This document shows positions 47,924 through 55,701 of a stretch of DNA of 64,000 bases, one piece after another. Position numbers and translations under genes: made by a program. The stretch's first letter is position 1. Every line of letters begins with the position of its first letter. Origin of the DNA: Mayamaea pseudoterrestris (lineage: Eukaryota > Bacillariophyta > Bacillariophyceae > Sellaphorales > Sellaphoraceae); the NCBI GenBank assembly GCA_027923505.1, contig BROI01000038.1:1-64000 (forward strand), in the 5' to 3' direction. The notes under the pieces were generated by a model. That model worked only from the letters and a program-made list of their open reading frames with translations, made no database searches and was not told the DNA's origin.

Positions 47924-49858
47924 ATGACTCCATCTACATTGACGATTGACATTTCATGGCTCAAGTACTTGTCGTCTGGAGACTCGATACTTGCCATTAT
48001 CATTGGATTGCTAGGAGCTTTTCTACTGCGAATACTCAGTCGACTCATGGAAGTATCAACGCCATTTCACGTAAGTCTTCATCGATCGACTACCTGAAAT
48101 AGTCGCGTGACAGACGCAGCTCTTACTCACTTATTGGAAACATATTTTTTTACTATGAAAGGCAACCCATGAACGCTTGAAGCAAGTATTTCCCAAGGCC
48201 TTGACAAATAAGGAATTGGTTCATTACATTCGCAAAAATTTAAAGTCACACGGATACAATCAAAATTCGTTAGTCGCTACCTCATTATGTTGCGACGAAG
48301 TCAATCGCGTCTTAGAGAATGACCTGAAGAATACGTATGGAAGCTACTTTTCAATGGGAGGCTTGGCAGGAACTCCTTTTGGAGGAGTGACGGCCTTTGG
48401 TGCAATGTAAGTTGAGCAGCGACGAGTCTTGTATACATGCACGTTCGTTCTGAATACGATTTTCTCATTGAACTTCACATGTTATTACTACAGGGCTCAT
48501 CACATTCCCGACGGAGGATCATGTGTCATTGTTTATGGACCGCATGTAGGTATTGACGCATCCGGCAAGGTTGGGTCCATTGATCGGCGCGGACGAGCCA
48601 AGGCGGGCGCCTGCTGCGGATCGGCAGTTGCCGCATGCGCCTACGTCAAGTCGGTCTTGGATGGAACCGTCAAGGAAACTGGACCGCCATCTTGTCCACT
48701 TGATGCACAGCAAACTTTTGTTGGCCAGTTGCTCCTTCCGCACGCTGAGCGCGTCCATGCGGCCGAAGACCCATTGTGCGAACTTCCGTACGCCCTGTAT
48801 GATGCGCAGAATGAGTTAATGTCGCAGATTGTTGCCAAGGGAGCTTCACATGTTGAATCAGGAAAGATTGCCTTGTTAGGAGGAATTCAAATTAATACGC
48901 CAAACGGAATGTCCGACTACTTTTTGCCATTGAGATTTGTCGTCTTCAACAACCAAGGAGCCAGAATTGACAAAATTATTGACAACTCGGTTCGAAGCGC
49001 AACGGCCAAGATTTCCACAGCCTTTCCGCACGCTCTCACCAACATGGAGCTTGTTGATCGCATCAAGGACATGCTGTCGGATTACGGCTACGGAAAGTCG
49101 ACATTGGTGGCAACTTCACTTTGTTGCGACGAAGTCAACCGGCCTTTGGAGGAAGACTTGCAGGATGCGTTTGGCGAGCACTTTAACATGGGTGGCCTGG
49201 CAGGCTTCCCGTTTGGTGGAGTTACGGGGTTTGGAGCCTTTGCTCACCATATTCCAGGTACGTTTGTTGATCGCTAATGATTGTGACTCGATAGTAATTT
49301 AATGTTGGCTTCTCACGCTTTGCACACCTTCACACTTCACGTCTAACAGATGGTGGTTCATGTCTTGTCGTGTACGGACCTCACGTTGGAGTCGACTCCG
49401 ATGGTAAAGTAGGAACGGTGAACCGAAGAGGACGCATGAAGGGAGGATCCTGTTGTGGAAGTGCCGTTGCCGCCGCCATGTATGTGAATAGCGTCATGAA
49501 GGGCGCCGACAAGGCTGACCTTCCATTAGATCCTCTCGATGCGCAACAAACTTACGTCGGTGAAATGCTTTTGCCGTATGGTGAGCGCCTGCAATCCGCC
49601 AAGGACCCAATGGTGGAATTGCCGCATGCGTTATTCGAGGCTCAGGATGAACTGATGCAAAAGATTATTGCCAAGGGCTGCAAGGAGGTTGCTGGACGAG
49701 GAAAGATTGCCTTGCTTGGTGGCATTCAGATCAACACACCAGAAGGCGTGCCAGACTACTTTTTGCCGCTACGTTTCGAGCTTTTAAATAATCGCGGCAT
49801 CATGATTGAGGATCTCATGCTGGAGACGCACAAGAATCGAAAGATGATTGCGGCATAA
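47924..49858 (+). CDS. Membrane-anchored tandem LCIB / theta-carbonic anhydrase-like protein
   Basis: Modelled as join(47924..48070,48162..48406,48494..49257,49350..49858), 554 aa; introns 91, 87 and 92 bp, all GT-AG and frame-conserving. Exon 1 encodes one hydrophobic helix (SILAIIIGLLGAFLLRILSR, about residues 20-39) and no cleavable plastid signal. Two full LCIB domains follow (about 50-295 and 299-545). Each has LVATSLCCDEVNR, GGLAG-PFGGVT-FGA, AHHIPDGGSC, YGPHVG and CCGSAVAA; the Cys of CCDEVNR, a His of AHHIP and a Cys of CCGS are the probable zinc ligands by analogy with beta-type carbonic anhydrases. LCIB proteins act in the CO2-concentrating mechanism; diatom members include theta-carbonic anhydrase. 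Predicted activity is CO2/bicarbonate interconversion. Tandem fusion plus a membrane anchor is the odd feature. Confidence 0.93.
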
Positions 49859-50126
49859 GTTCAATTGCGTCAGTACTCGGCAGCCGAGTACGACTCAGGA
49901 CGCAACTCGTCGCGTCGCATTCCACAAATCGCACTTTCGCATCTTTCCAAAATGGAGGCACCATACGCACCCTTTCGCCTGTCTGCAGATGTATCTGTTC
50001 ATCATTGTCATTCACTCACATATTACATAGAGAATTGGTTATTGGTAGTATTATGCACGAGTCTAATCTATGTAGAAATGCGAAATCTGCAACTCCACCA
50101 GCTGCGCATGGTAAATTCCTGGCCAC

Positions 50127-51671
50127 TCAGCTCTTGCTCGTTCGACTCCTCATTTCCACCGCCGCATGCATGCCATAATTGTCGTCGCCCTCCTCCTCTT
50201 CGTCTCGCTTGACACTTGCGTATGAGTTCTCGCTCGTTGGACGAAACATCATGCCGGCCGAGACGTAAAATGTGAGTGTGACAAGCTCGACAACAAAGTA
50301 TCGGACCCACAAATACTTGTACGAAAGCATGGAGATGAACAGATACACCAAGATGCGAGTGGCGTAAATGTAGGCAACCACCAAAAGGTAAAAGCTTCGA
50401 AAGAGATGAAGCTTTTCCAAGATTTCGCCCTTGTCACCATCCTGCAAGGCAGCTTCACGGTCTGGTTCGGTTGCAACCTCCTGGTCGCTATAATTGATGC
50501 CAATCAAATCGTCCGACTCATCGCCCATGGTCTTTTCCAGTTTATTGACTTGCCATACAATGGGCAGCAATACGGCGCAGCAGCAGAGAATGTCCACCAA
50601 GTGTAGTATGGCCGTCCATCGCGCATACGAAACCTCGCCCAATGCTTCATGTTCGAGTGCAATGAGCGCCACTTGCGTGACAACCTGCAGAACGAGTACA
50701 CCAGTTACCACTTGCTTCTCATTCTTGTTTAGAAAGGGTTTGACAATGCTCCAGCCTGTGCCAAGTAGTAGAATGACGACGAACAAGAATATGCTTCTCG
50801 CCGTATTCAAAAGGTAGTAAATGACCGTCCATCCTTCGGCATGTCCGTACAAGCGAATGCCGTGGTAGCGAAGGCTTTCCACGAAGGTAGTGATAAACTT
50901 TGTGAAAACAAGTGCCGTCATTATATAGTGAACCTTGTATACGCTCAAAACATGCTGCTGCTTGACGTCGCGCAAGTGTAGCAGCCAAACAATGGCGCAC
51001 ACCAAGTAGCTGACGGCAAAGAGGAAAAAGACTAGCGGCAGTCTCATTTCACCTGCCGTGAGAAATGATGGTTCGCCGTATGAGTCATAGTTGACGTATT
51101 GAAAGTCAACGCGAAAGGTAGATTGAACATTGTCGGCAAGATCGAGATCGTAGCTGCAGACTTGGTAGAGCAAAAAGTATAGTCCTTCCTCGCCCTTTTT
51201 GAACTGGTAGCGAATAGACTTTGGCGCAAATGAGAGTGATGCTAAAGTCTCAGTAGGTTCCATGGCATGTAGAATAATTCCATTGGCTGCCGACGTAATT
51301 TCTTGCTGCTGCTCATCGAAAGTGTCGTCGACAAATGTATCATCCGATCGGTCGTTCCGAAAAAGCTCAAAACTGCAAATCGTTTGGTTGGCTCGCAGTT
51401 GCTCCATGTATCGATAAAAAGCCGCTTCATTTGGAAACCTTTGTAGATAAAAGCCAGCGTCGACAGGAGTACTTTGTTTCGTAGGAAAAGTCAAGACAAA
51501 GTCATTGATTGTCAGCTCGTACACTCCGCCTTGCAGAAATCCAAACGGAGGACCCACGGGACCAATTAAGGATGGTCCATTGTTAATATGAACATTATGC
51601 TTGGTTGCTGCTGTGAAAGACTCTAATATAAACACCAGGAATACGTAGTATGATGGCTTGTAGAGCGCCAT
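50127..51671 (-). CDS. GOST-family seven-transmembrane protein (GPR107/108-like)
   Basis: A 514-aa uninterrupted frame with ATG at 51671. Residues 1-22 form a signal peptide (YYVFLVFILESFTAA); residues 23-215 are a lumenal domain (YELTINDFVLTFP, LYFLLYQVCSYDL); seven hydrophobic helices follow from about 220 (LPLVFFLFAVSYLVCAIVWL, KVHYIMTALVFTKFI, ARSIFLFVVILLLGTGWSIV and others). GWSIVKPFLN after the fourth helix is a signature of the GPR107/108/TMEM87 GOST family. These proteins sit in Golgi/trans-Golgi membranes and take part in protein trafficking. The tail is acidic with Tyr (DNYGM). It is convergent with the LCIB gene (268 bp apart) and diverges from the SNARE gene. Confidence 0.92.
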   Translation of the reverse strand: MALYKPSYYVFLVFILESFTAATKHNVHINNGPSLIGPVGPPFGFLQGGVYELTINDFVLTFPTKQSTPVDAGFYLQRFPNEAAFYRYMEQLRANQTICSFELFRNDRSDDTFVDDTFDEQQQEITSAANGIILHAMEPTETLASLSFAPKSIRYQFKKGEEGLYFLLYQVCSYDLDLADNVQSTFRVDFQYVNYDSYGEPSFLTAGEMRLPLVFFLFAVSYLVCAIVWLLHLRDVKQQHVLSVYKVHYIMTALVFTKFITTFVESLRYHGIRLYGHAEGWTVIYYLLNTARSIFLFVVILLLGTGWSIVKPFLNKNEKQVVTGVLVLQVVTQVALIALEHEALGEVSYARWTAILHLVDILCCCAVLLPIVWQVNKLEKTMGDESDDLIGINYSDQEVATEPDREAALQDGDKGEILEKLHLFRSFYLLVVAYIYATRILVYLFISMLSYKYLWVRYFVVELVTLTFYVSAGMMFRPTSENSYASVKRDEEEEGDDNYGMHAAVEMRSRTSKS

Positions 51672-51873
51672 GGTGAACGTTCATTTTGTGGTCTCGGGAA
51701 TCCCCGCCAATTGAATAAGTACCGCTACGAGTCTCGGCATCACCGCTACGACACATGCCTGCCAAAGAACAAATTCGTCGAGCGGCGCCATGGCGGACTC
51801 TTTCGATCACAAGACTCGTCGTTGAACCATTTTGATACACCTTTGATGGTTATAGAACAGTAATTAAGTCGTT

Positions 51874-53493
51874 ATGGATCATATAGAAAGTTTTGAGGAT
51901 TCTTGTCTGGCCGCTCAGCGCGCCGCTGTCGAATCCTTAAAAATTGGACGAAACACTTTGGAGCAAGCTCAGCAACAATCCGAGCAGCTTGTTCGGGCTT
52001 CAACCATTGCGGATGATACGAAGTATGATTTGGATCATGCAGCTAGACTACTGAAGAATATGACATGGACAGGATGGCTGTCCAACAAGCTTTCAAAGGA
52101 GCCAATGATTGCGAAGAATGTGACAGTCAAGAATGATGCGTCACGTTTCAACGGAGCAGGAGGAGCAGGACCTACAACTGCAACAGCAAACAGACAAACG
52201 CCTTCTACTATGCTCGATGACAATTTGACTTTGATCGATAACGTACCAAAGTCACATCAGGCCGCCGCTCAAAGCCTGTCAAACTATCGAGCGAACCTAC
52301 GAGTCTTGCAAGACTTTTGCGAAAACAATATTAATCAACCAATTGACAATGAAGAGGAGAAGCAACAATTGACAACTCTTCAAACCATTTGCAACGCCAT
52401 GTATGAGACGGCTCGTGTGCAGTTGGAGAAACTGCAGAGTGATTGCACTGCTGCAACTACGGCAAGGGACGATGAGACGATACGATGTGCGCTTCATGCC
52501 GAGTTGCGACAATTGCGCGAACAACAGATGGGTCTACAATCAAGACGACCGCAACGGACTTCTGCGAAACCAACCTCACAACAGTCACTAGTGTTGCAAG
52601 AAAATAATGGTCGCGTGGAGCAGCAGCAGCAGTTGGAACAAGCAGCAACTCCTGTCGCAGTGAATATTCGATCGTCAGTTACCATGAAGGAACCAGCGGC
52701 AACAAAATTAAAACCATCCGCGTCACAGCTACAGGAGCAGATGCAGGGTGATCATTTGCAGTTTCTTTCGAGCAACTTGGAGGAACTCGGTCAACTAGCG
52801 CAGCACTTGAATCATGCCGTCGTGTCATCGGTGCGAACCATGGACCACCTTGAAGATCAGTCGGAAAGTATCTTGGAGCAAACCAAGCATGTCACGCGCA
52901 GAGCTGATCGCATGGCCCGACACTCCAACAGGAGCTGGTTTAGTAGTCGCAGTGCTGGTAGTCGGCACTTGCTTGGACAGGTTGCCATATGCCACGTGGA
53001 ATCGGGTTACTACATGCGCATGTGGAATGGCACAGTCTTTTTGGTACCAGACTTTGACAAGGCCTCTTGTTTACTTGGTATATACGGTACGCAACAGTCG
53101 ACGAAGCAAACTGGAGCTGGGTCGTATGGATTGGTCGGAATCAAGAACCTTGTGGAATGCACCTGGCTTGGCCAAAGCTTGTTGGGATTGCTGGATGCCA
53201 AGGCGACAACGTTTGGTCATCGACAAGAGTGGGAGCTTGATGAAACCTTTTTGATAGAGAGCAATGTAATTGATGGGTCCTCCGCCGACCGGCAAAGGAA
53301 TATTCATGGGGCGGTAGCCGCGACCCCGTCACCACGGCGATTGACGAGATTGCTTTGCGCTTCGGCTGGGTGGGGATCGGGCGCGTATCTCATGGTCGGA
53401 TCAGCTCCTCATTATGCAGTTACTATCGGTGGATCAGGCGTTGACGAAAAGAATAAGGCGGCGATGTGGTGTTTCGTAAATCAGCCTCCATGA
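51874..53493 (+). CDS. Qbc SNARE (SNAP-25-like) fused to a C-terminal beta-trefoil-like domain
   Basis: A 539-aa single frame. Residues about 8-70 fit the Qb helix of SNAP-25/SNAP-29 (ESLKIGRNTLEQAQQQSEQL, then DLDHAARLLKNMTWTGW). After a Gln-rich linker, residues about 287-355 form the Qc helix (LSSNLEELGQLAQHLNHAVV, DHLEDQSESILEQTKHVTRR). There is no C-terminal membrane anchor, as in SNAP proteins. Beyond it, residues about 365-539 look like a fascin-type beta-trefoil: VAICHVESGYYMRMWNGTV, GLVGIKNLVECTWLGQS, EWELDETFLI and WGSGAYLMVG. The SNARE part should form target-SNARE complexes on plasma or endosomal membrane; the trefoil might bind actin or a ligand, but this is inference. SNAP-25 proteins normally end after the Qc helix. 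Confidence 0.85.
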   Translation: MDHIESFEDSCLAAQRAAVESLKIGRNTLEQAQQQSEQLVRASTIADDTKYDLDHAARLLKNMTWTGWLSNKLSKEPMIAKNVTVKNDASRFNGAGGAGPTTATANRQTPSTMLDDNLTLIDNVPKSHQAAAQSLSNYRANLRVLQDFCENNINQPIDNEEEKQQLTTLQTICNAMYETARVQLEKLQSDCTAATTARDDETIRCALHAELRQLREQQMGLQSRRPQRTSAKPTSQQSLVLQENNGRVEQQQQLEQAATPVAVNIRSSVTMKEPAATKLKPSASQLQEQMQGDHLQFLSSNLEELGQLAQHLNHAVVSSVRTMDHLEDQSESILEQTKHVTRRADRMARHSNRSWFSSRSAGSRHLLGQVAICHVESGYYMRMWNGTVFLVPDFDKASCLLGIYGTQQSTKQTGAGSYGLVGIKNLVECTWLGQSLLGLLDAKATTFGHRQEWELDETFLIESNVIDGSSADRQRNIHGAVAATPSPRRLTRLLCASAGWGSGAYLMVGSAPHYAVTIGGSGVDEKNKAAMWCFVNQPP

Positions 53494-54505
53494 TACTCTG
53501 GGCTTGTTTAACGCGACGTCATTCGCCGACTAACAACTCCTTTGCTTCGACCACGAGCAAGAAGTATCGTTATGACTGAGCGTCGATGTGACTGAGTGTT
53601 GAATGCAGTCACGACTACCGGTAATTCTTACAGGAAATTGACGCAGCGACTCTGAACATTTCGATATTCGTTAACTTTTACCGTTTAACGAGGCGAGCCT
53701 GGGAAGTGAAGCGGAACGATTCGATTGCACTATTGTGCTAGTAGATTGCCAGGAGTTCGATACGATAGAGCTGATACTGAACGCATATCAAGTGCTTTTG
53801 GCTTGGATCGCGCCTCTTAAAGCCAACATATTCTGCGTCGCGATTTTCGACGCAACTGATTGCCCGATGGGCTGTTCTTATTCGACCGAGATCGTTTGGA
53901 TTGTCGGCGACATGCTATTCCGACGAAACGGATAATGCACAAGCCACATTGCGGCGCCTTCATTTGGAATGTTACTCTTAACGCATCAAGCTAAAGACGG
54001 TTTTGACGGTATTGCTCATCGTTGTATTGTTGCGAGGCACTGACAGCACGGCTACTTTTTTCCTACACTTTTACGTTATCATAGTCCTTTGCCGGTCTCT
54101 CTACGCCTGGTCGATATAGATGTGTGCATATGTTATATACGATAAATCGATGCATAAAGCAGTTATCACCAAGTATGCTGCTGTCAATCATAGTACAGGT
54201 ATGTGGTCTTTGCAGTGGCACATGCTCGCAGGCAGACCTGCCACCACCAACGCCAACGACACAATGTGCCGCACTACTGCCTGCAATACGTCTCACCCAA
54301 ATGCTGGTTCGACACAGCATTTACTTTAGTTCAATATTGTACCGCGCAGAAGACACATGGAATGAATAATTTTGTTTGTGGAGCTTGTTGTTTGCAGTTT
54401 TACCGGCTCACGCTCGAGTATCCTTGCCGAAAGTTCAAATTCTGGCGCCGATCATGTACAAACGTAGGACCAATCGCAGATCCAACCATCATTGCAATGG
54501 TAAAT
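53494..54505. other. Convergent intergenic region, about 1 kb
   Basis: Between the SNARE gene and the second LCIB gene. One TACCGGTA lies at 53616. Short open frames of 60-85 codons overlap on both strands and show no family resemblance. Confidence 0.45.
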
Positions 54506-55701
54506 TCACTGCAGGTCGTACAAGCCTTCCAGCATGCTCTTGCTGAATCGCCGTCCGCCGGTGCCGCCGGCATCGAAAACCAAGGGCAGAAAGTAGTCGG
54601 ACGCTCCAATTGGCGTGTTGATTTGAATGCCACCCAGTAGCGCAAGAGGCGCATTACTACCGGCTACTTGAACAATCTGTCGGAGCATGGTGTTTTGTAT
54701 ATTAAATAAAATATAGGGCAGCTCCAATGTTGGATCAGCTGCACGGCTGAGTGCGTCCTTGTGCGACAGCAGAAGCGAATTGACTTGCGATTGCTCCATA
54801 TCCAAGCCTGTGAAAGCAGCGGTAGGCTTTGCAGCTCCATGCGTCTCTCCACTATTAAATGCTGGCTGCTGTGGCTGCATGACATACTTGGCAGCCGCCG
54901 CTGCGCTTCCACAGCATGGCGTAGCAACTCCGCCTTGTCCGGCACGTTGAAGCTGCCCCAGCGTTCCATGTTCGTCAATTCCAACATGTGGACCGTAGAC
55001 AATAAGAGCCGATCCGTCGTTTGGAATGTGACTCTGCATGGCTGACTCAATGGAAAATGGTGAAACCAATATGGGTCAACTGTCAGTTCTTTGTTTTCAA
55101 GTCAACAGTAGACGAGTCTGTCGCCTTGTCATTCGTTCCGTACCTTGAAATCCAGTCACCCCGGAGAATGGAAACCCAGCCAAGCCACCCATGCTAAAGC
55201 AATCTCCGTCTTTTTTTACGTGAGTGTAGATGGTGTGAGCAACTACTGCTCATCGGTGATGGTATGAGCAATGACGCAGCGAACGTTGTTTGCTTCACGC
55301 AGCCATCACTTACAGTACGCGCCGAATTCCTGTTCTAGTCCTCGATTGACTTCATCGCAACAGAGCGAAGTAGCCAGTAAAACCTTCGGCGTTGATGGTG
55401 ATGCTCGCGATATTGTTGGTGGAACGAGTTTTGATACTCGACGTGCGAGACTCGAGTATGTCATGGCCCTTGGAAAGGCCTTGGCGAGGGTCTCTTCATA
55501 CGGTTTTATTGCAAGGGAAGCATCTGTCTGTTTTGTTACTTGTGATGCAGGAAGATTTGCTTGTCTCTGCAGCGCCAAGGATCCAGTCAGCAGCTGTCCA
55601 AAAGTTAGACGACGTGATGGATCCGTCACATCCAGCGCAATCGTCCAAGAGAATGACGTCGCCAGCAAACAAAAAATGAAAACACAAGTCGCTCGAGTCA
55701 T
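54506..55701 (-). CDS. Single-domain LCIB / theta-carbonic anhydrase-like protein with signal peptide
   Basis: Modelled as complement(join(54506..55041,55144..55209,55314..55701)), 329 aa; introns 102 bp (GTACGG...GAGTCAG) and 104 bp (GTAAGT...AAAAAAG). Residues 1-25 form a signal peptide (ATCVFIFCLLATSFSWTIA), placing it in the secretory or plastid-bound route; the site is A^LD rather than A^F. The LCIB core includes LLATSLCCDEVNR, FSMGGLAGFPFSGVTGFQ, MQSHIPNDGSALIVYGPHVG and PCCGSAAAA; all three presumed zinc ligands are kept, but the first His of the HH pair is Ser. It ends YDLQ. It is more diverged from both domains of the tandem gene than those are from each other. Role expected in CO2/bicarbonate handling. 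Confidence 0.92.

What the first reader, a model, noticed from the sequence alone, without database searches (positions are those of the whole stretch)
47924..55701. LCIB/theta-carbonic-anhydrase cluster, including a membrane-anchored tandem-domain protein
Three LCIB domains occur within 8 kb: two fused in one chain behind a transmembrane helix, and one secreted or plastid-bound with a signal peptide. All three retain the presumed zinc ligands. Two different address signals suggest carbonic-anhydrase activity placed in two compartments from one locus, which would be a compact piece of a CO2-concentrating mechanism.
Basis: partly seen in the sequence, partly recalled or inferred. Interest (0 to 1): 0.75.

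Follow-up and report, generated by a model that had tools for sequence, protein, structure and literature searches.

The report
Two neighbouring diatom carbonic anhydrase genes
Two neighbouring genes of a small diatom encode enzymes of a known family that interconverts CO2 and bicarbonate, one apparently bound to a membrane facing the cytosol and one apparently sent into the photosynthetic membranes, which could place the same reaction at two ends of the cell's CO2-capturing system.

Summary
In detail: 47924 and 55701 are the start codons of two LCIB/theta-CA genes, three PF18599 domains in all, each with the presumed zinc ligands. The host is the pennate diatom Mayamaea pseudoterrestris; the single-domain protein equals its deposited MPSEU_001093700. 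The family is known. Phaeodactylum tricornutum has a tandem protein of the same plan (65% identical, N-terminal helix), so fusion and anchor are old. One further theta-CA gene was found in the genome.

The single protein is a very long branch; its origin, local duplication included, stays open.

Best reading: a lumenal CO2-releasing enzyme and a cytosol-facing anchored one, genetically linked. Activity, location and CO2 response are untested. Known family, interesting arrangement.

The parts
47924..48070 (+). Exon 1 of the tandem theta-CA gene: start codon and N-terminal anchor
47984..48040 (+). Most hydrophobic 19 residues (SILAIIIGLLGAFLLRILS, residues 21-39), predicted membrane anchor
   Evidence: like-placed helix in P0001 and P0004; helix 19-43 in the model of P0001
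48162..48406 (+). Exon 2: first part of LCIB domain 1 (SLCCDEVNR motif, Cys residue 92)
48494..49257 (+). Exon 3: rest of LCIB domain 1 (HIPDGG, CCGSA) and start of domain 2 (SLCCDEVNR, Cys residue 341)
49350..49858 (+). Exon 4: rest of LCIB domain 2 and stop codon
55314..55701 (-). Exon 1 of the single-domain theta-CA gene: signal-peptide-like start, twin-arginine region, start of the domain
55597..55617 (-). Twin-arginine motif SRRLTFG (residues 29-35)
55144..55209 (-). Exon 2 of the single-domain gene
   Evidence: this splice choice equals the deposited protein
54506..55041 (-). Exon 3 of the single-domain gene: rest of the LCIB domain and stop codon
50127..51671 (-). Unrelated ORF between the two genes: GOST seven-transmembrane protein
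   Evidence: PF06814, E 1e-19
51874..53493 (+). Unrelated ORF between the two genes: 539 aa, weak V-SNARE_C match under the family cut-off

Best explanation
Two members of the LCIB/theta-carbonic-anhydrase family, each probably an active zinc enzyme, are sent to opposite sides of the diatom's inorganic-carbon path. The single-domain protein enters the secretory/plastid route by its signal peptide and is passed into the thylakoid lumen by a twin-arginine (Tat) signal, where in acid it would turn HCO3- into CO2 for Rubisco. The tandem protein is held by one N-terminal helix, N-out/C-in, so that both catalytic domains face the cytosol at an ER-derived membrane (possibly the chloroplast ER), where at higher pH they would turn leaking or entering CO2 into HCO3-. 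Shown: gene structures, domains, ligands, presence of the signals, old fusion. Inferred: activity, Tat export, topology, which membrane, direction of reaction.
Against: The single protein is a very long branch (1.83 changes per column) and departs at 8 of 71 columns that are at least 90% conserved, against 1, 1 and 2 in the other three domains of the genome. Its place in the tree is open: pairing it with window domain 1 (p-AU 0.321), window domain 2 (0.448), the C21 gene (0.533) or the 8 Tat rows (0.249, likelihood 16.4 lower) is not rejected either. P0168 in the 19-row clade has 34 residues before the domain and no twin Arg. The region after the signal peptide has acidic residues and Leu, not Phe, at the likely +1. 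The window protein's own charge difference across the helix is only one unit, and the charge rule does not name the membrane. No expression, activity or localisation data were available. Shared contig length is indirect evidence of linkage, and in the second tree the rows nearest by path to the single protein were others (P0097, P0147, P0163).
Confidence: 0.45

Rival explanations
1. The tandem protein is a type II signal-anchor protein (N-in, C-out): its domains lie in the ER lumen or outside the plasma membrane and it works as an external carbonic anhydrase.
For: A single N-terminal helix without a cleavage site can insert either way; the window protein's charge difference is only one unit.
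Against: 31 of 31 helix-class proteins have more positive charge on the domain side, P0004 by five units; these rows are related, so they are not 31 independent cases.
Confidence: 0.2
2. The single-domain protein is stromal, periplastidal or secreted rather than lumenal; the twin-arginine stretch is a chance likeness in a fast-changing N-terminus.
For: Long branch; no Phe at +1 of the likely cleavage site; residues 1-47 have pLDDT under 50.
Against: Motif and place after the signal peptide match P0126, P0131 and P0150; 82 of 100,000 shuffles give the motif.
Confidence: 0.3
3. The single gene arose as a local copy of one domain of the tandem gene and then changed fast; that alone explains why the two are neighbours.
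For: Pairing it with window domain 1 or 2 is not rejected (p-AU 0.321, 0.448); neighbouring copies are common.
Against: It shares an intron of the same place and phase (phase 1 in the Ala codon after FG or FQ) with the C21 gene, while the introns in the tandem's domains lie elsewhere (read by eye); identity to the tandem's P. tricornutum relative is only 45%.
Confidence: 0.3
4. The neighbourhood of the two genes has no function; they are two ordinary theta-CA genes.
For: Opposite strands, two long unrelated ORFs between them; motifs of the TGACGY kind are not clearly enriched upstream (2 and 1 per 500 bases, 1.45 per kb over the window).
Against: Chance linkage of two of three genes is 0.17% (a question asked after the fact, and it does not tell duplication from selection); relatives share a contig length elsewhere.
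Confidence: 0.5
5. The single-domain protein has lost catalysis and has a regulatory or structural role.
For: 8 of 71 strongly conserved columns changed; HIPD reads HIPN; long branch.
Against: All ligand and Asp-Arg positions kept; 54 of 279 domains have another residue or a gap at that HIPD column.
Confidence: 0.15

Closest known systems
Phaeodactylum tricornutum tandem LCIB protein P0004 (545 aa, 'predicted protein'; by inspection its second domain is that of PDB chains 9vzj, 9w00 and, but for one residue, 9w05)
   Same: Two LCIB domains behind one N-terminal hydrophobic helix, no signal peptide by inspection; 65% identical over 95%; domains pair off with the window's domains in the tree
   Different: Different species; which P. 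tricornutum gene number it has, and where it sits in the cell, could not be established here
Pt-theta-CA1 (Pt43233), thylakoid-lumen theta-CA of P. tricornutum
   Same: Same family; the window's single protein has a signal-peptide-like start plus a twin-arginine motif that would suit the same compartment
   Different: Its sequence was not read here (Kikutani 2016 is not held); orthology with the single protein is not shown
PtLCIB4 (PDB 5b5y)
   Different: Sits with the single protein in an unresolved part of the tree; no tandem in the solved chain
Chlamydomonas LCIB/LCIC
   Different: Green-algal stromal proteins (recalled), 22% and 17% identical over the aligned part
Porphyridium beta-CA 1ddz
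   Same: Also a two-domain carbonic anhydrase in one chain (recalled), listed
   Different: Classical beta-CA; independent fusion (inference)

Membership tests
LCIB / theta-CA family (PF18599) | Profile match above the curated cut-off | tested here: met
   526.9 and 192 bits against a cut-off of 25
LCIB / theta-CA family (PF18599) | Cys-His-Cys zinc ligands and Asp-Arg pair (ligand identity recalled, not from a call) | tested here: met
   Present in all three domains; His 278, second Cys of CCGS 278, first 275, Arg 276 of 279 domains (the leading Cys was part of the motif used to find domains, so its 279 of 279 is by construction)
LCIB / theta-CA family (PF18599) | Beta-CA-like LCIB fold | tested here: met
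LCIB / theta-CA family (PF18599) | CO2 hydration activity | not testable with these tools
   Needs purified protein
Lumenal theta-CA type | Signal peptide and thylakoid (twin-Arg) signal | tested here: met
   SRRLTFG after a hydrophobic N-terminus; sequence evidence only, no signal-peptide predictor was available
Lumenal theta-CA type | Falls in the clade of twin-Arg theta-CAs | tested here: inconclusive
   p-AU 0.652 with the 19-row clade, 0.249 with 8 rows; other placements not rejected either
Lumenal theta-CA type | Located in the lumen of pyrenoid-penetrating thylakoids | not testable with these tools
   Needs microscopy
Anchored tandem theta-CA of P. tricornutum type | Two domains, N-terminal helix, domains sorting with the respective P. 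tricornutum domains | tested here: met
   the groups of first and second domains have supports of 87 and 82 with open forks; joint window d1+d2 clade rejected p 1.6e-5
Chlamydomonas LCIB/LCIC type | Arg at the position of PtLCIB4 Ser47 (recalled from Jin 2016, not read; PDB lists an S47R mutant) | tested here: not met
   Cys in all three domains

The most novel reading that the evidence does not exclude
Diatoms keep a two-ended theta-CA module as an old genetic neighbourhood: a Tat-exported lumenal enzyme that releases CO2 and a tandem enzyme tethered to the cytosolic face of the chloroplast ER that recaptures leaking CO2 as HCO3-. The second would be a candidate for the unidentified mechanism that prevents CO2 efflux from the diatom chloroplast.
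Probability: 0.12. Interest if true: 0.72.

Novelty: new member of a known kind. Interest (0 to 1): 0.4.

Why it matters
A lumenal theta-CA is essential for the CO2-concentrating mechanism of P. [quoted passage not shown] A helix-anchored, probably cytosol-facing group of theta-CAs would be a concrete candidate. M. pseudoterrestris, in which three theta-CA genes and one bestrophin were found (lower bounds), would be a simple organism in which to test it.

Tried and rejected
Recent local duplication of the tandem gene into the single one: I first took it as rejected, because a clade of the single protein with both window domains is rejected (p-AU 1.15e-4). That test is confounded: window d1+d2 alone is rejected (1.6e-5). 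Tested one domain at a time, it is not rejected (0.321, 0.448). The claim was withdrawn, a rival was added and the novel case was lowered by 0.01 for it.

Fusion within the Mayamaea lineage: rejected (d1+d2 p-AU 1.6e-5).

CO2-responsive promoter motifs (TGACGY, recalled from work on P. tricornutum): 2 and 1 in 500 bases upstream, 93 in the 64-kb window; nothing to claim.

Other CA classes in the genome, as context: alpha 9 matches, beta 2, PF08332 (used for iota) 1; delta and zeta gave none, but those two searches rang in no control genome, so absence is not shown. Matches are stretches, not genes.

Descriptions in print of an anchored tandem theta-CA: none seen in the listings (no papers), nor in the passages. 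The central papers (Kikutani 2016, Jin 2016) are not held, and Nawaly 2023 was not found, so this is weak.

Rows dropped: 4 proteins without the domain motif; domains under 190 aa; proteins not starting with M or with under 30 aa before the domain (P0131, which starts with V, is thus not among the 113). In one search the classes were my own thresholds; of 198 proteins, 84 had too short an N-terminus, and the other 114 fell into 37 other, 32 plastid-like, 31 helix, 13 twin-Arg, 1 MGC. Each homology table shows the best 120 of 651, 847 and 823 hits.

Full report
The organism. The single-domain protein read from the window is identical, over all 329 residues, to MPSEU_001093700 of Mayamaea pseudoterrestris, on a contig of 198,268 bases; the window lies on contig C38 of G000, which has that length. 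G000 has 30.6 Mb in 41 contigs. It is a pennate diatom (recalled).

The two genes. The tandem gene (+) has four exons from 47924 to 49858 and gives 554 residues with two PF18599 domains. Among the 120 rows listed of 651 hits none is identical to it (best 81%), although an identical protein of similar length would have ranked first; it may be modelled otherwise in the deposited annotation. The single gene (-) has three exons from 55701 to 54506. Two long unrelated ORFs lie between them, a GOST seven-transmembrane protein and a protein with a sub-threshold SNARE match.

How many. A six-frame search of the genome with PF18599 gave seven matches, which make three genes: these two and one on C21, deposited as MPSEU_000897100, 274 aa, whose N-terminus (MMRVAVLRVANNGSFQKKLFTSTAVSHA) looks mitochondrial to me (inference). 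Two of three random genes within 7,778 bases is a 0.17% event in a simulation that ignores contig ends; the question was asked after the fact.

Catalytic residues. Over 279 domains taken from 228 proteins (227 fetched and the window's tandem), the presumed ligand His is kept in 278, the second Cys of CCGS in 278, the first in 275, and the Arg in 276; all are kept in the window's three domains. The leading Cys was part of the motif used to find domains. The single protein differs at 8 of 71 columns that are at least 90% conserved; the tandem domains differ at one each and the C21 domain at two. That marks it as fast-changing but not as dead.

The tandem fusion is old and has company. P. tricornutum P0004 has the same plan at 65% identity, and its second domain has solved structures (by inspection). 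In a tree of 74 rows the first domains of the anchored tandem proteins group together (support 87), as do the second domains (82), each with P. tricornutum; both groups have open forks, but a window d1+d2 clade is rejected (p 1.6e-5). Other two-domain proteins, such as the plastid-type one of Seminavis (P0022), have both domains in one separate group, which suggests further fusions (inference).

The anchor. Of 198 proteins that start with Met and hold the domain motif, 84 had under 30 residues before the domain. Of the other 114, 31 fell into a helix class by thresholds of my own: hydrophobic peak above 1.9 from residue 12 on, not classed as plastid-type or twin-Arg. All 31 have a more positive net charge in the 15 residues after the peak than in the 15 before it. 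By the positive-inside rule (recalled) this means N-out/C-in. The rows are related, and the window protein's own difference is one unit. Two tandem relatives start with MGC instead (P0037, P0048), which would suit lipid anchoring (inference).

The other address. The single protein starts MTRATCVFIFCLLATSFSWTIALDVTDPSRRLTFGQLLTGSLALQ. P0126, P0131 and P0150 have a signal-peptide-like stretch, then TRRQTFG or TRRQYFG, a weakly hydrophobic stretch and an AxA-like site, the plan of a thylakoid Tat signal (recalled). Of 113 N-termini of 30 aa or more, 12 carry [STK]R[RK]xx[FLI]G in the first 80 residues; 10 of the 12 belong to one 12-row clade of support 96, the other two being this protein and P0138. 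In the wider clade of 19 rows (support 99), 11 of 11 with 50 or more residues before the domain have twin Arg under a looser pattern; of the rest, P0168 with 34 residues has none, six have under 15 and one is a PDB chain.

Where the single protein belongs is open. It is the longest branch of the tree. Held with the 19-row clade, the likelihood is 6.0 units higher than in the free search (p-AU 0.652); with the C21 gene 1.4 higher (0.533); with window domain 2, 1.8 lower (0.448), with window domain 1, 8.5 lower (0.321); with the 8 Tat rows alone 16.4 lower (0.249). None is rejected. So neither membership of the lumenal clade nor a local duplication of one tandem domain is shown or excluded by the tree. 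An intron of the same place and phase is shared with the C21 gene and not with the tandem's domains (read by eye), which speaks somewhat against local duplication.

Linkage elsewhere. In the hit tables, P0058 (tandem, grouping with the window's domains) and P0171 (the single protein's nearest row in the first tree; paired with support 63, but not among the five nearest by path) report the same longest contig, 108,232 bases. P0009/P0010 (10,803) and P0013/P0079 (9,808) coincide likewise. I did not have the means to fetch these contigs, so this is indirect.

Mechanism. In P. tricornutum a lumenal theta-CA dehydrates HCO3- in the acid lumen of pyrenoid-penetrating thylakoids; its loss is reported to abolish both the constitutive and the low-CO2-induced CCM; prevention of CO2 efflux is named as unsolved (PMC11142338, passages). 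By inspection the single protein is the only one of the three theta-CAs found with a signal-peptide-like start, so it is the natural candidate for the lumenal role in this species if a theta-CA does that work; alpha, beta and PF08332 matches exist in the genome and could do it instead. The tandem protein, if C-in, would act on cytosolic CO2. Which membrane holds it is unknown.

A point to flag. I could not establish whether P0004 is a known numbered P. tricornutum CA. A review shows the P. tricornutum theta-CA as a 517-aa protein, XP_002177507.1 (PMC7215798, passages), while P0004 has 545 residues. If P0004 proved to be the lumenal theta-CA1, my topology for the tandem protein would be wrong.

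Verdict. New here are the twin-arginine motif, the charge bias of the helix-anchored class, the age of the fusion and an indirect hint of older linkage.

Noticed in passing
G000:C38:165959-167320 (-), locus L012: The only bestrophin found in the genome, with an N-terminus like a plastid signal (SISGFS), lies on the same 198-kb contig, about 110 kb from the theta-CA genes; P. tricornutum is reported to have four (PMC11142338). May be coincidence.
   Followed up: partly
P0037, P0048 (no window coordinates): Tandem theta-CAs that begin with MGC, as for N-myristoylation and palmitoylation, a second possible way of tethering a theta-CA to a membrane.
   Followed up: no
G000:C21:539281-540029 (-), locus L010: Third theta-CA gene of the genome with a mitochondrion-like N-terminus; shares an intron place and phase with the single gene of the window.
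   Followed up: partly
window:57921-58691 (+): A 256-aa ORF with an AFVTP motif after a hydrophobic N-terminus, like a diatom plastid signal; no Pfam family at E 0.001.
   Followed up: no
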